A stretch of 44,297 nt of DNA, taken from contig DIST01000030.1 in NCBI GenBank assembly GCA_002421645.1, positions 1 through 44,297 on the forward strand, written 5' to 3'. Shown here piece after piece: positions 37,096-44,297 of the stretch. Position 1 is the stretch's first letter. Each line of letters begins with the position of its first letter. Source of the stretch: Flavobacterium sp. UBA6203. GTDB taxonomy: Bacteria > Bacteroidota > Bacteroidia > Flavobacteriales > Flavobacteriaceae. The translations under genes were made by a program, and so were the position numbers. The notes beneath the pieces are model-generated. The model was not told the origin of the DNA and did no database searches. It saw nothing but the letters and a program-made list of their open reading frames with translations.

Positions 37096-38364
37096 ATGAA
37101 AGAAGATTTTTTGCACCACGTGTGGCAATTCAAGAAATTTGATATTGCCAATATAAAAACTACAAAAGGAGAATCGATTCAAATTCTCAATTCGGGTCAA
37201 TATTTACAACTTGCGGGACCTGATTTTTTCAATGCGCAACTTATTATCGGAAATCAAAAATGGGCTGGAAATGTTGAAATTCATCTCAAGTCATCGGATT
37301 GGTATGTGCACAATCACGAGAAAGATTCGAATTACGATTCGGTGATTTTACATGTCGTTTGGGAACATGATGTGCCTATTTTTAGAAAAAATAATTCCGA
37401 AATTCCAACGTTAGAACTCAAGGAATATGTCTCGCTTTCGGATTTGCATAAATATCAATCGTTAGTAAGTCAGAAATCTTGGATTTATTGTGAAAATGAG
37501 TTACGAAATGTAGATGATTTTATTTTTAATAATTGGCAAGAACGTTTGTTTTTTGATCGTTTAGAAAGAAAATCGCAATTGATTTTTGAGTTAGCGGAAA
37601 CTTCTAATCAAGATTGGGAAGCGGTTTTGTTTTGTCTTTTGGCTAAAAATTTTGGTTTAAATACGAATGGCGAAATGTTTTACAAAGTTGCTAAATCGAT
37701 TCTATTTTCCGTAGTTCGAAAAGAATCTTATTCTCTAGAATCACTAGAAGCTTTATTGTTAGGTCAAGCAAATTTACTTTCTCATGATTTTCAAGATAGT
37801 TATGCAAAAGAACTGCAAAAATCCTATGCTTACTTAGTTCAGAAATATCAATTACAAGAAAAAGTAGCTGGCTCGGTGGAATTTTTCAAGCATCGTCCTG
37901 ATAATTTTCCTACTATTCGATTGGCGCAATTGGCTAATTTGTATTTTCATCGAAAGAATATATTTTCTTTGGTTATGAATAGTACATCCATAAATGAATT
38001 ATATCAAATTTTTAATATAGGTGTCAGTAAATATTGGGAAATGCATTATAATTTTGATAAAGAAAGTTCGAAAAAGATGAAAAAGCTTTCTAAATCATTC
38101 ATCGATTTATTGGTTATAAATACAATCATTCCGCTTCGATTTGCTTATGCCAGAAGTCAGCAAAAAGAGATTACTCAAGAATTAATTGATTTGGCGACTT
38201 TAATTCCAGCGGAACAAAATGCGATTATTGAAAAGTTTAAGAAATTCGGATTACAGATAAATAATGTCTATGAATCTCAAGCCTTATTAGAGTTAAAAAA
38301 GAATTATTGCGATAGTAAAAAGTGTATGGATTGTGCAATTGGTCATTTTATTCTAAAAAAATAA
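37096..38364 (+). CDS. DUF2851 family protein
   Basis: The 422-residue protein has the DUF2851 N-terminus, MKEDFLHHVWQFKKFD, and core LAGPDFFNAQLIIG..KWAGNVEIHLKSSDW, with VILHVVWEHDVPI. The rest is mainly helical, with a closing CDSKKCMDCAIGHFIL motif whose three Cys and a His may bind metal. The family is widespread in Bacteroidota and has no proven function. The N-terminal part has been compared by some to nuclease-like folds, but I see no clear catalytic set. No signal peptide, so cytoplasmic. It sits alone with its own promoter. Confidence 0.92.
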   Translation: MKEDFLHHVWQFKKFDIANIKTTKGESIQILNSGQYLQLAGPDFFNAQLIIGNQKWAGNVEIHLKSSDWYVHNHEKDSNYDSVILHVVWEHDVPIFRKNNSEIPTLELKEYVSLSDLHKYQSLVSQKSWIYCENELRNVDDFIFNNWQERLFFDRLERKSQLIFELAETSNQDWEAVLFCLLAKNFGLNTNGEMFYKVAKSILFSVVRKESYSLESLEALLLGQANLLSHDFQDSYAKELQKSYAYLVQKYQLQEKVAGSVEFFKHRPDNFPTIRLAQLANLYFHRKNIFSLVMNSTSINELYQIFNIGVSKYWEMHYNFDKESSKKMKKLSKSFIDLLVINTIIPLRFAYARSQQKEITQELIDLATLIPAEQNAIIEKFKKFGLQINNVYESQALLELKKNYCDSKKCMDCAIGHFILKK

Positions 38365-38367
38365 TCG

Positions 38368-38375
38368 TATTTTTG
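38368..38375 (+). promoter_or_regulatory. -7 promoter element for the PspC-domain gene
   Basis: TATTTTTG matches TAnnTTTG, 17 bases upstream of the ATG at 38393. Confidence 0.45.
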
Positions 38376-38392
38376 AAAAAAAATATTTAAAA

Positions 38393-38614
38393 ATGGTTCA
38401 AAACCTATTACATTTTTTTGAAAAACACGGATTTTTTGTTGCCACACGCTTCGCTGATAGATTAGGGATGCGCGCAACAAATGTTCGCTTGTTTTTTATC
38501 TATATTTCTTTTATAACAGTAGGTTTAGGATTTGGATTGTATCTTACTTTGGCTTTTCTTTTAAAGTTAAAAGATATGATAAAAACTAAAAGAAGTTCAG
38601 TTTTTGACTTATAA
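38393..38614 (+). CDS. Short PspC-domain membrane protein
   Basis: The 73-residue protein reads HGFFVATRFADRLGMRATNV followed by one hydrophobic span (about 31-56, LFFIYISFITVGLGFGLYLTLA) and a Lys-rich tail. This is the PspC-type pattern (ADRLG..VRxxF...TxGxGxxxYL), reduced to the core. PspC proteins act at the inner membrane in phage-shock/envelope stress responses in other bacteria. Here the context gives no psp partners, so the role is open. Confidence 0.85.
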   Translation: MVQNLLHFFEKHGFFVATRFADRLGMRATNVRLFFIYISFITVGLGFGLYLTLAFLLKLKDMIKTKRSSVFDL

Positions 38615-38692: not shown

Positions 38693-40513
38693 ATGACAGC
38701 AAAAGTAGAATCATGGGGTTCACGCGTTGGACTTATCTTAGCCATGGCTGGAAACGCTGTAGGATTGGGTAATTTTTTAAGATTTCCAGTTCAAGCAGTG
38801 CAAAATGGAGGAGGTGCATTTATTATACCTTATTTGATTTGTTTTTTAATAATGGGAATTCCATTATTGTTGATTGAATGGTCAACAGGTCGTTTTGGTG
38901 GGAAATTTGGTAATCATAGTACACCTTATATTTTAGATACAATGGCTAAAGGTCGTATTTGGAAATATATTGGAGTATTTGGAATTTTTACCAATATTGC
39001 CGTTGCGGCTTATTATTGTTACATTGAATCTTGGACAATGTCTTATGTGTATCATTCGATTGTTGGTACATTTGACGGAATGAGCCAAGCTAATGTTGCA
39101 GGATTTTTCAATTCTTATGTCGATATTTCTCATTCTACAACCGGAATTCCATATGAAGCAGTAATTTTTTATGTGATTTGTTTACTTTTAAATACTTGGA
39201 TTTTGTCTAAAGGTTTAGGTGGAATTGAAAAAGTAGCAAAAATTGGTATGCCATTGTTAATTTTATTTGGTGTAATTTTAGCAGTAAGAGGTATTACTTT
39301 AGGAACTAGTGGAGCATCAGATATTTTTCCAAATGCAAATGCTTGGGATGGTTTAAATTTCTTATGGACACCACAATTTGACTCTTTAGCTAATCCAAAA
39401 GTATGGTTAGCTGCTGCTGGACAAATTTTCTTTACACTTTCTGTAGGAATGGGAACCATTCATTGTTATGCTGCTTATTTAAAGGAAAGAGACGATGTGG
39501 CCTTGAATGCTGTTTCTGCTGGATTCATGAATGAATTCGTTGAAGTGGTTTTAGGATCTTTAATTGTTATTCCAATCGCAGCAGGATATTTAGGATTAGA
39601 TTGGGTTATTCAAAATGCTGGTTTTGGTATGGCTTTTCAAACAATGCCTTATTTATTCCAACAATGGGGAGGTCTTTTAGCTGTTTTGGCTGGAGTATTT
39701 TGGTTTGGACTTTTATTCTTTGCAGGAATTACCTCTTCATTAGCTATGGGAACTCCATGGATGGGCTTTATGTCGGATGAGTTTGGTTGGTCAAAAAATA
39801 AAGGAGCTTGGTCTTTTGGAGCATTAGCTTTAATTATGGGATTGCCTACAGTTATTTTCTATAATCAAGGTGTTTTTGATCAATATGATTATTGGGCTGG
39901 GACTGTGAGTTTAGTTGTATTTGCATTCCTAGAAACCGTATTGTTTTCTTATATTTTTGGTATCAATAGAGGTTGGGATGAAATCAATAAAGGGGCAGAT
40001 ATCAAATTACCTAAATTCTTTAAATATGTAATTTTAATTATTACTCCTTTATTATTAGGTGCTGTTTTGGTTTCAAGTATTCCTGATTGGGTTAATCAAG
40101 TTCAAAATAATGATACACAAAATAAAGAGTGGTTTGCGGAGAATTATTTTGCTGAAAATTTTGAAGGTTCTGGTAAGGTATCAGGTATAGTTATTGAAGT
40201 AAAATCAGATTATGTTAAATTTGAATTTGAAAGCGAAAGAAAGAAATTTGATAAAGTATCAAATCAAGTTCTTGTTGAAAAATTCAATGATACAAAAGAA
40301 TATAAATTTGATTCAAGTTTAAATCAAGAAGCTATTGTAAAAGTGGGGGATGTTATTAAACCTGGTGATGCAATTGCTAAAGGAGATTTTACAAACAATA
40401 CTTTATATAAGTTTATCGGAAGAATGCTATTGTTAACGCTTTTTATATTTATTTCAATAATTGTTTACGTTGCTTATAAGAAACGTGTTAAAGAAGGGAG
40501 GGCTACATTATGA
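38693..40513 (+). CDS. Sodium-dependent transporter, NSS/SNF family, with a soluble insertion
   Basis: The 606-residue inner-membrane protein opens with the NSS signature WGSRVGLILAMAGNAVGLGNFLRFP (TM1, split here as WGSRVGLILAMAGNAVGLGN and then FLRFP), which holds Na+ and substrate contacts. GGGAFIIPYLICFLIMGIPL follows (TM2). Further spans run to about 465 (FKYVILIITPLLLGAVLVSS). An unusual ~95-residue hydrophilic stretch (about 477-570) then precedes the last span (LLLTLFIFISIIVYVAYKK). Within it, VKVGDVIKPGDAIAKGD resembles a biotinyl/lipoyl-like beta hairpin. NSS proteins import amino acids with Na+; the substrate is unknown. The stop overlaps the next gene's ATG (ATGA). Confidence 0.94.
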   Translation: MTAKVESWGSRVGLILAMAGNAVGLGNFLRFPVQAVQNGGGAFIIPYLICFLIMGIPLLLIEWSTGRFGGKFGNHSTPYILDTMAKGRIWKYIGVFGIFTNIAVAAYYCYIESWTMSYVYHSIVGTFDGMSQANVAGFFNSYVDISHSTTGIPYEAVIFYVICLLLNTWILSKGLGGIEKVAKIGMPLLILFGVILAVRGITLGTSGASDIFPNANAWDGLNFLWTPQFDSLANPKVWLAAAGQIFFTLSVGMGTIHCYAAYLKERDDVALNAVSAGFMNEFVEVVLGSLIVIPIAAGYLGLDWVIQNAGFGMAFQTMPYLFQQWGGLLAVLAGVFWFGLLFFAGITSSLAMGTPWMGFMSDEFGWSKNKGAWSFGALALIMGLPTVIFYNQGVFDQYDYWAGTVSLVVFAFLETVLFSYIFGINRGWDEINKGADIKLPKFFKYVILIITPLLLGAVLVSSIPDWVNQVQNNDTQNKEWFAENYFAENFEGSGKVSGIVIEVKSDYVKFEFESERKKFDKVSNQVLVEKFNDTKEYKFDSSLNQEAIVKVGDVIKPGDAIAKGDFTNNTLYKFIGRMLLLTLFIFISIIVYVAYKKRVKEGRATL

Positions 40514-40665
40514 ATTCAGCAGCATTAATAACTATGGTTTTGGCGCAAGGAATTGTGATTTGTTTAACAGGGTTCTTTTTTTATAAAGTCTTAACAACGC
40601 CTCCTGCTCAAGAGCCAGATTCTTTTTCTGAAAATGATGAAGAGTCAGTAAGAAAAAACGATTAA
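40510..40665 (+). CDS. 51-aa single-span protein, probable small subunit of the NSS symporter
   Basis: The frame from ATG at 40510 encodes MNSAALITMVLAQGIVICLT plus a hydrophobic GFFFYKVLTTPP segment, then an acidic tail (EPDSFSENDEESVRKND). The single membrane helix is about residues 5-28. The start overlaps the symporter stop as ATGA, the mark of translational coupling. MetS-like small subunits of this size accompany NSS transporters such as the methionine/alanine importer MetPS of Corynebacterium, and similar genes are annotated next to NSS genes elsewhere. Subunit role is inferred from size, topology and overlap. Confidence 0.8.
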   Translation: MNSAALITMVLAQGIVICLTGFFFYKVLTTPPAQEPDSFSENDEESVRKND

Positions 40666-43298: not shown

Positions 43299-43325
43299 TT
43301 ATTTGTATTTTTAAAAAAAAGAATG

Positions 43326-43333
43326 TATATTTG
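43326..43333 (+). promoter_or_regulatory. -7 promoter element for rpsU
   Basis: TATATTTG matches TAnnTTTG. A TTTG at 43302-43305 lies 20 bases upstream, fitting the -33 element spacing. The start of transcription should be near 43337, so the leader would be about 27 bases. Confidence 0.6.
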
Positions 43334-43347
43334 CACCTCTTAACGAG

Positions 43348-43355
43348 AGGAGGTG
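43348..43355 (+). promoter_or_regulatory. Strong Shine-Dalgarno of rpsU, the only one seen in this window
   Basis: AGGAGGTG is an eight-base complement of the 16S rRNA 3' tail, with GGAGG ending 10 bases before the ATG at 43364. It overlaps two possible small hairpins: cctct (43336-43340) with agagg (43346-43350), and cacctc (43334-43339) with gaggtg (43350-43355). In Flavobacterium johnsoniae bS21 covers the anti-SD, so this site may allow translation mainly by bS21-lacking ribosomes. Confidence 0.75.
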
Positions 43356-43363
43356 TCTATATT

Positions 43364-43558
43364 ATGTTAATTATACCAATTAAAGACGGAGAAAATATCG
43401 ATAGAGCATTAAAGCGCTATAAAAGAAAATTTGATAAAACAGGAACTGTTCGTCAGTTACGTGCACGTCAAGCTTTCATTAAGCCATCTGTTTTAAACAG
43501 AGCTAAAATTCAAAAAGCAGCTTATATTCAAGGATTGAGAGACTCATTAGAAAGTTAA
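43364..43558 (+). CDS. rpsU: 30S ribosomal protein bS21
   Basis: The 64-residue protein starts MLIIPIKDGENIDRALKRYK, with KFDKTGTVRQLRARQAFIKP and a basic helical tail. I chose the ATG at 43364 because it directly follows the SD site and matches the family N-terminus; the frame is open 33 bases further up. In Bacteroidota bS21 is part of the pocket that sequesters the 16S anti-SD. It has its own promoter, and a terminator lies 21 bases after the stop. In related genomes rpsU and a xerC/D-type gene precede hpf, tRNAs and tuf, which would lie past the window edge. Confidence 0.97.
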   Translation: MLIIPIKDGENIDRALKRYKRKFDKTGTVRQLRARQAFIKPSVLNRAKIQKAAYIQGLRDSLES

Positions 43559-43579: not shown

Positions 43580-43624
43580 AACCGCTAAATAATAAAGTGT
43601 AACTTTGTTTTTAGCGGTTTTTTT
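43580..43624 (+). terminator. rpsU terminator whose loop carries the next gene's promoter
   Basis: Arms aaccgctaaa (43580-43589) and tttagcggtt (43610-43619) are perfect, with a 20-base loop and a T run to 43624. The ATG of the recombinase follows at 43625. The loop contains TAACTTTG (43600-43607). Confidence 0.8.
43600..43607 (+). promoter_or_regulatory. -7 promoter element for the recombinase, inside the terminator loop
   Basis: TAACTTTG matches TAnnTTTG and ends 17 bases before the ATG at 43625. Transcription would start in the 3' arm of the hairpin, so the new transcript would not carry the complete terminator. No convincing -33 element was found at the usual spacing. Confidence 0.5.
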
Positions 43625-44297
43625 ATGACTTCAAATCTACAGGCATATCAAGATTATTTGGTTAAAGAGAAGAATTATTCTCCTTTGACAGTTCGTGCAT
43701 ATTTAGATGATATTTTATCTTTTGAGAATTATTTAAAGCAACAGTCAGTTTCTTTGGAAGAAGTTGTTTATCCGAATATTAGAAATTGGATAGTTATTTT
43801 GGTGGAACAAAATATGTCGACTACTTCTGTTAATCGAAAAATCTCAGCATTAAAATCCTTTTATAAATTTTTACTAAAAGTTAAGCAAATTTCTGTAAAT
43901 CCACTTCTTAAGCATAAATCGTTAAAAACGGCTAAAAAAGTTCAAATTCCATTTTCAGAAAATGAAATGAAAGATGTTTTTTTAGAAAATGAATATTCAG
44001 ATAATTTTGAAGGGATCCGAAATCGATTTGTTTTAGAACTTTTTTATACTACTGGAATCAGAAGGGCAGAATTGATAAATCTTAAGTTAAATAGTATTAG
44101 TGAAATGCAAAAAACAATTCGGGTTATTGGGAAAAGAAACAAAGAACGAATTATTCCAATGTTGGATTGCACTTTGGATTTATATAGAATTTATAAAAAG
44201 AAAAGAAATAATTTAGAGCAAATTAATGATAAAGAGATGTTAATTTTGTCTAAAACTGGTCATAAAGTGAGTGAATCGTTTGTGTATCGATTAATAA
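43625..44297 (+). CDS. XerC/XerD-type tyrosine recombinase (3' end outside window)
   Basis: The first ~224 residues are visible. The N-terminal SAM-like core-binding domain (about 1-90) shows MTSNLQAYQDYLVKEKNYSP and LTVRAYLDDI, and NRKISALKSFYKFLLK. The catalytic domain begins near 115, with the first active-site Arg146 in TTGIRRAELINL and Lys170 in VIGKRNKERIIP. The HxxR and Tyr parts lie beyond the edge. XerC/D resolve chromosome dimers at dif. The close link to rpsU is usual in Flavobacteriaceae and points to the housekeeping copy rather than a phage or transposon integrase. XerC versus XerD cannot be settled from this part. Confidence 0.92.
   Translation, partial: MTSNLQAYQDYLVKEKNYSPLTVRAYLDDILSFENYLKQQSVSLEEVVYPNIRNWIVILVEQNMSTTSVNRKISALKSFYKFLLKVKQISVNPLLKHKSLKTAKKVQIPFSENEMKDVFLENEYSDNFEGIRNRFVLELFYTTGIRRAELINLKLNSISEMQKTIRVIGKRNKERIIPMLDCTLDLYRIYKKKRNNLEQINDKEMLILSKTGHKVSESFVYRLI

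What the first reader, a model, noticed from the sequence alone, without database searches (positions are those of the whole stretch)
43326..43364. rpsU leader: lone perfect Shine-Dalgarno, likely bS21 autoregulation switch
The sequence shows AGGAGGTG 10 bases from the rpsU ATG, while I found no comparable SD before any other start in this window. It is established for Flavobacterium johnsoniae that bS21, with neighbouring proteins, sequesters the 16S anti-SD. I infer that low bS21 exposes the anti-SD and favours rpsU translation. Two mutually exclusive short hairpins overlap the SD, which could add a second layer.
Basis: partly seen in the sequence, partly recalled or inferred. Interest (0 to 1): 0.8.

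Follow-up and report, generated by a model that had tools for sequence, protein, structure and literature searches.

The report
Ribosomal protein S21's self-control signal
The gene for ribosomal protein bS21 carries an unusually strong ribosome-binding signal that lets bS21-poor ribosomes make more bS21; this feedback was already shown by experiment in a related Flavobacterium, and the extra RNA hairpin proposed here is probably mostly not transcribed.

Summary
rpsU (43364-43558) has an 11-bp SD, GAGAGGAGGTG (43345-43355), predicted at -19.7 kcal/mol against the 16S tail: the strongest before any of 1501 ATG triplets on both strands. The proposed mechanism is already published: bS21-lacking Flavobacterium johnsoniae ribosomes have a freed anti-SD and preferentially translate rpsU (McNutt 2023, PMC9976891).

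Two points weaken. (1) Hairpins: a TAnnTTTG box (43326-43333) predicts transcription from 43338, so the first four bases of the hairpin arm are untranscribed; the transcribed leader folds at only -0.7 kcal/mol and the arm is not conserved. (2) 'Lone': ATG 40510, overlapping a transporter's stop, has a second strong SD-like site (-16.5) before a conserved 51-aa ORF; synonymous codons in relatives look selected for it.

A side result I did not find in print: many Flavobacteriaceae have extra bS21 genes. All 40 fetched copies form one clade, lack the SD, keep Tyr54, and several lie beside a sigma-70 or cold-shock gene. None was seen in 81 genomes of the window's genus.

The parts
43302..43305 (+). 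TTTG, possible -33 promoter element (consensus recalled)
   Evidence: 20 nt before the -7 box in the window; but a TTG 16-24 nt upstream is seen in only 24 of 81 leaders, so weak
43326..43333 (+). TATATTTG, -7 promoter box (TAnnTTTG)
   Evidence: Box present in 81 of 81 Flavobacterium-type leaders at a distance that predicts a 24-27 nt leader; position -12 to -5 from the start as in PMC9723704
43338..43363 (+). predicted 5' UTR, 26 nt, +1 at 43338
   Evidence: Inferred from the -7 box; F. johnsoniae's predicted leader is 25 nt in PMC9976891. No 5' end was mapped here
43345..43355 (+). extended SD GAGAGGAGGTG
   Evidence: -19.7 kcal/mol, first of 1501 ATG triplets; nine of its eleven columns invariant in 81 leaders
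43334..43355 (+). DNA inverted repeat read as a hairpin (arms 43334-43341 and 43348-43355); upper arm starts 4 nt before the predicted +1
   Evidence: -10.5 kcal/mol if read from 43334, -0.7 for the predicted leader; the four bases after the -7 box are CACC in only 22 of 81
43364..43558 (+). rpsU, bS21, 64 aa, with Tyr54
   Evidence: PF01165, TIGR00030, residue 54 = Y
43580..43619 (+). terminator-like hairpin after rpsU, followed by a T run, with a TAACTTTG box (43600-43607) inside it
   Evidence: Fold -17.6 kcal/mol; sequence
40492..40501 (+). second SD-like site AGAAGGGAGG, inside the last codons of the transporter gene
   Evidence: -16.5 kcal/mol before ATG 40510; synonymous Gly codon GGG in 11 of 12 correctly spaced cases, 0 of 6 others
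40510..40665 (+). 51-aa ORF whose ATG overlaps the transporter's TGA stop
   Evidence: Translation; homologues after the same transporter in relatives; no Pfam or NCBIfam match over cut-off

Best explanation
This is the ordinary Flavobacterium rpsU autoregulatory leader. A TAnnTTTG promoter makes an mRNA with a leader of about 26 nt that begins just upstream of an 11-bp SD. Mature 30S subunits hold the 16S 3' tail in a pocket of bS21, bS18 and bS6 and use this SD poorly. Subunits that lack bS21 have a free anti-SD and initiate faster on rpsU, so bS21 is replenished and the loop closes. Shown here by sequence: the SD, its conservation, the promoter box, Tyr54. Shown by others in F. johnsoniae: the translational response. 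Inferred: that this organism does the same, and the exact transcription start.
For: 11-bp pairing at -19.7 kcal/mol, first of 1501 ATG triplets; 81 of 81 leaders keep it; 103 of 110 family type-1 bS21 genes have -13 or stronger; anti-SD tail intact in 8 of 8 Flavobacterium genomes searched; Tyr54 in the window and in 80 of 80 Flavobacterium-type loci. Published: rpsU'-gfp rises 3- to more than 4-fold on bS21 mutation or depletion, and initiation on rpsU mRNA is about 10-fold faster on C-terminal-deletion ribosomes at 20 C (PMC9976891).
Against: No measurement in this organism. The genome-wide rank of the SD could not be tested. Seven of 110 family type-1 genes lack the SD, all in genomes under 2 Mb. 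[quoted passage not shown] A second strong SD-like site lies in the same window.
Confidence: 0.92

Rival explanations
1. The leader is also an RNA switch: two mutually exclusive hairpins hide or expose the SD and add a second layer of control.
For: Read from 43334 the strand folds at -10.5 kcal/mol. With G-U pairs and the four bases upstream of the predicted +1, helix length is slightly above shuffles (family 4.88 against 4.51; Flavobacterium 4.67 against 4.51; Flavobacterium Watson-Crick only 3.67 against 3.47).
Against: Predicted +1 is 43338, so the strong arm is mostly not in the RNA. The transcribed part pairs no better than shuffles in Watson-Crick pairs (27 distinct of 81: 2.26 against 2.66; 98 distinct of 103: 3.06 against 3.22) and the arm's first bases vary (CAGC 34, CACC 22 of 81). 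No Rfam match at gathering thresholds.
Confidence: 0.05
2. The SD simply makes rpsU a highly translated gene, without feedback.
For: No data on this organism; wild-type ribosomes do bind rpsU mRNA stably in published toeprints.
Against: In F. johnsoniae a strong SD placed before tuf'-gfp gave somewhat lower output in wild type and more when bS21 was mutated or depleted. SDs otherwise occur less often than chance there. In the family sample the SD is confined to type-1 bS21 genes: 0 of 40 paralogues have it.
Confidence: 0.04

Closest known systems
bS21 (rpsU) autoregulation by bS21-lacking ribosomes, Flavobacterium johnsoniae (McNutt et al. 2023, PMC9976891; abstract, sections 28, 32 and 34 and passages seen)
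   Same: Same gene, same extended SD, same predicted leader length within 1 nt, same Tyr54, same 16S tail in the genus
   Different: Shown here by sequence only; the paper finds that most Flavobacteriales have a single gene with an exceptional SD, whereas this window has a second strong SD-like site
Anti-SD sequestration in the Bacteroidetes ribosome (Jha et al. 2021, PMC7797042; not held; known to me through PMC9976891 and PMC8710568 passages)
   Same: Provides the pocket (bS21, bS18, bS6) on which the switch rests; the window's bS21 has Tyr54
   Different: bS18 and bS6 of this organism were not examined
Termination-reinitiation at overlapping gene pairs (PMC6728339; passages seen), for the site at 40492-40513
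   Same: ATGA overlap with an SD-like motif at the end of the upstream gene
   Different: That paper concludes Bacteroidetes do not use SDs for reinitiation; this junction looks like an exception
bS21 paralogues in Francisella tularensis (PMC9578407; search listings and mentions in other papers only), for the SD-less paralogues
   Same: Several bS21 homologues in one genome, possibly interchangeable in the ribosome
   Different: The Flavobacteriaceae copies differ in SD use and in neighbours; no function was tested

Membership tests
rpsU autoregulation by anti-SD release (McNutt 2023) | rpsU SD with pairing energy below -13 kcal/mol | tested here: met
   -19.7 kcal/mol, with ViennaRNA and a 12-base tail rather than the paper's free_scan
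rpsU autoregulation by anti-SD release (McNutt 2023) | rpsU has the strongest SD of the genome's ribosomal genes | not tested
   Own assembly not held. In the window it is first of 1501 ATG triplets
rpsU autoregulation by anti-SD release (McNutt 2023) | Intact CCUCC anti-SD in 16S rRNA | tested here: inconclusive
   Intact in 8 of 8 Flavobacterium genomes; not readable for this organism, and none found in G001
rpsU autoregulation by anti-SD release (McNutt 2023) | Tyr54 in bS21 | tested here: met
   Residue 54 is Tyr
rpsU autoregulation by anti-SD release (McNutt 2023) | rpsU translation rises when bS21 is lacking | not testable with these tools
   Published for F. johnsoniae only
RNA hairpin switch in the leader | Both hairpin arms lie in the transcript | tested here: not met
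   Predicted +1 at 43338; arm starts at 43334. A prediction, not a mapped 5' end
RNA hairpin switch in the leader | Pairing conserved or above chance in relatives | tested here: not met
   Transcribed part 2.26 against 2.66 in shuffles (27 distinct of 81) and 3.06 against 3.22 (98 distinct of 103), Watson-Crick pairs

The most novel reading that the evidence does not exclude
The pool of bS21-free, SD-reading ribosomes has more than one client and, in many Flavobacteriaceae, more than one controller. In the window's lineage the 51-aa ORF at 40510, whose start overlaps the stop of a sodium-symporter-family transporter, is a second SD-dependent gene. In about a third of the other genera sampled, an SD-less bS21 paralogue that keeps Tyr54, often beside a sigma-70 or cold-shock gene, can fill the same pocket and so turn down the SD-bearing copy, exchanging one ribosome type for another. 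The two parts are independent; the probability is for at least one being right.
Probability: 0.35. Interest if true: 0.7.

Novelty: already known. Interest (0 to 1): 0.35.

Why it matters
The rpsU switch is among the clearest cases of specialised ribosomes in bacteria, so finding its parts in another Flavobacterium-type genome is useful but expected. The side results would matter more if true: SD-less bS21 paralogues would be a natural test of ribosome exchange under the published model, and a second, apparently selected SD would break the view that these ribosomes serve rpsU alone.

Tried and rejected
Hairpin layer: judged unsupported on predicted start site, folding and conservation. My first pairing script used a wrong SD pattern, scored only 14 of 81 and 39 of 103 leaders and then crashed. 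It was redone; only the box, leader-length and energy counts are used.

Genome-wide uniqueness of the SD in the window's own genome could not be tested. A core-motif search of the nearest genome does not single out rpsU (20 sites against 16 control). 16S tails of seven genomes whose rpsU lacks the SD and of two with only the paralogue: 0 of 9 found, so loss of the anti-SD there is untested. A long 16S pattern gave 0 of 120; a shorter one worked. Phage origin of the paralogues: the window's bS21 matches 7 of 50,697 phage records, none annotated; not followed, and the paralogues themselves were not searched there.

Rows dropped: G004 (bS21 hit without a listed place); L299, L301-L305 and L308 from the transporter junctions (fragments, repeats or distant hits); L300 was but not. 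The tree rests on 64 columns and its bootstrap had not settled.

Full report
What is there. The ORF at 43364-43558 encodes bS21 (PF01165). Upstream, GAGAGGAGGTG (43345-43355) can pair over 11 bp, one of them G-U, with the 16S tail CACCUCCUUUCU at -19.7 kcal/mol (ViennaRNA duplexfold). The tail was read from relatives because the window's own assembly is not held and the nearest genome, G001 (30% of sampled 31-letter words shared), gave no 16S. It was the same in the 8 of 10 Flavobacteriaceae genomes that matched and in 43 rRNA copies of 8 of 8 Flavobacterium genomes.

More than chance. Of 1501 ATG triplets on both strands the rpsU start has the strongest upstream pairing, and 5 of 1501 reach -13, rpsU included. 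The best of 26 other ATG-started ORFs of at least 100 aa reaches -6.0. In 81 of 81 Flavobacterium-type leaders (the window and the 80 loci kept from 548 confirmed hits) the pairing is -18.3 or stronger. The columns -19, -18, -16 to -14 and -12 to -9 are invariant. These 80 loci are the closest matches to the query, so not an unbiased sample. The wider sample is 120 family genomes, of which 115 gave a bS21 hit. I fetched loci from 114 of them, 150 in all; one hit, G004, had no listed place.

Promoter and start. TATATTTG (43326-43333) fits TAnnTTTG. In F. psychrophilum that box lies at -12 to -5 from mapped starts (PMC9723704, passages), so +1 is predicted at 43338 and the leader at 26 nt. The predicted leader is 24-27 nt in 81 of 81 (25 nt in 69). 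PMC9976891 used a predicted start 25 nt upstream of the F. johnsoniae ATG. A -33-like TTTG (43302-43305) is present in the window, but a TTG at 16-24 nt before the box is found in only 24 of 81 leaders, so that element is weak evidence.

Hairpins. Read from 43334 the strand folds at -10.5 kcal/mol; read from the predicted +1 the leader folds at -0.7. The four bases after the -7 box are CAGC in 34 and CACC in 22 of 81. The transcribed part pairs with the SD no better than shuffles in Watson-Crick pairs (27 distinct of 81: mean 2.26 against 2.66; 98 distinct of 103 family leaders: 3.06 against 3.22). Against my reading: once the four untranscribed bases are added, some values are slightly above shuffles (Flavobacterium Watson-Crick 3.67 against 3.47; with G-U, Flavobacterium 4.67 and family 4.88, each against 4.51). 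I judge the hairpin layer unsupported; a mapped 5' end would settle it.

Mechanism and prior work. bS21 mutation or depletion raises rpsU'-gfp 3- to more than 4-fold, and C-terminal-deletion ribosomes initiate about 10-fold faster on rpsU mRNA at 20 C. About 80% of Flavobacteriales have an rpsU SD stronger than -13 that also ranks first among ribosomal genes. The structural paper behind it (PMC7797042) is not held. The finding is a further instance of a known switch.

'Lone' is not exact. ATG 40510 overlaps the stop of the transporter gene 38693-40513 (PF00209). It is preceded by AGAAGGGAGG (40492-40501, -16.5 kcal/mol) and begins a 51-aa ORF. Homologous small ORFs follow the same transporter in relatives. 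Of 38 junctions scanned (window plus 37 loci), 18 have a Gly-Arg pair within the last residues of the transporter. Where that pair lies 4-12 nt before the small ORF's ATG the Gly codon is GGG in 11 of 12; at other spacings it is GGG in 0 of 6 (Fisher p = 4e-4, not corrected for kinship). GGG is 12.9% of Gly codons in the same transporter genes and 4.9% in the window; AGG is 5 of 319 Arg codons in the window. Against this: 17 of 24 overlapping junctions do not reach -13, the sample is small and related, and the transporter is found in only 8 of 61 genus genomes, 4 of 60 family genomes and, at E 1e-60, 63 of 295 class genomes. PMC6728339 (passages) concludes that Bacteroidetes do not use SDs for reinitiation.

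SD-less bS21 paralogues. Of the 150 family loci, 110 are type 1 (the window's kind), 36 type 2 and 4 type 3. Types 2 and 3 form one clade of 40 (support 99/95; 64 columns only). None of the 40 has an SD of -13 or stronger, against 103 of 110 type-1 genes. Tyr54 is in 40 of 40, and in 106 of 110 type-1 proteins. 32 genomes have both types 1 and 2; 4 have type 2 without a type-1 hit (G067, G023, G054, G092, of which G054 and G092 are 99% complete). The match list was cut, so extra copies are undercounted. I read 20 contexts. Of the 17 type-2 ones, 10 have a 287-aa sigma-70-like gene directly upstream (two checked by Pfam; the others by their like first residues). Of the 3 type-3 ones, 2 have a cold-shock gene upstream (both checked). 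In the window's genus 75 of 81 genomes gave a bS21 hit, one each; none exceeds 70% identity to type 2 apart from one 22-residue fragment, so the window's organism probably lacks the paralogue. In 148 genomes of the order the only hits at 84% or more are three, all of the same family. PMC9976891 lists taxa with extra bS21 copies and names no Bacteroidota. I searched for such paralogues in print and opened passages of only some listed papers, so absence from print is not shown.

Losses. Seven of 110 type-1 genes have no SD at -13. All seven are in genomes under 2 Mb, some of them incomplete, though other small genomes keep it.

Verdict. Observation real, mechanism known, hairpin layer unsupported, 'lone' overstated. 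Interest in the finding itself is modest; the side results are the part worth following.

Noticed in passing
L161-L162, L164-L200 and L240, contexts L261-L280 (Flavobacteriaceae genomes): SD-less bS21 paralogues: 40 of 40 lack the SD, keep Tyr54 and form one clade; 10 of 17 type-2 contexts have a sigma-70-like gene directly upstream and 2 of 3 type-3 contexts a cold-shock gene.
   Followed up: partly
window 40492-40665: Second strong SD-like site (-16.5 kcal/mol) at an ATGA overlap between a transporter gene and a conserved 51-aa ORF; the Gly codon is GGG in 11 of 12 correctly spaced cases and 0 of 6 others.
   Followed up: partly
window 43580-43625: The terminator-like hairpin after rpsU contains a TAACTTTG promoter-like box (43600-43607), and the next gene (integrase family, ATG 43625) starts right after its T run. 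A TAnnTTTG lies within 110 nt after rpsU in 76 of 80 Flavobacterium-type loci; no shuffle control was run.
   Followed up: partly
L111, L140, L147, L159, L229, L231, L239: Type-1 rpsU without a strong SD, all seven in genomes under 2 Mb; 16S tails were not found for them, so whether the anti-SD is also lost is open.
   Followed up: partly
L210, L213, L230, L232, L233, directly before rpsU: An ATG stands immediately before the SD (ATGAARGGAGGTG), 20 nt from and out of frame with the rpsU start: a possible short upstream ORF that contains the SD.
   Followed up: no
window 38318-38418: ARAGORN's only tRNA call in the window is a 101-base tRNA-Phe with anticodon AAA, odd in length and anticodon; possibly a false call.
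   Followed up: no
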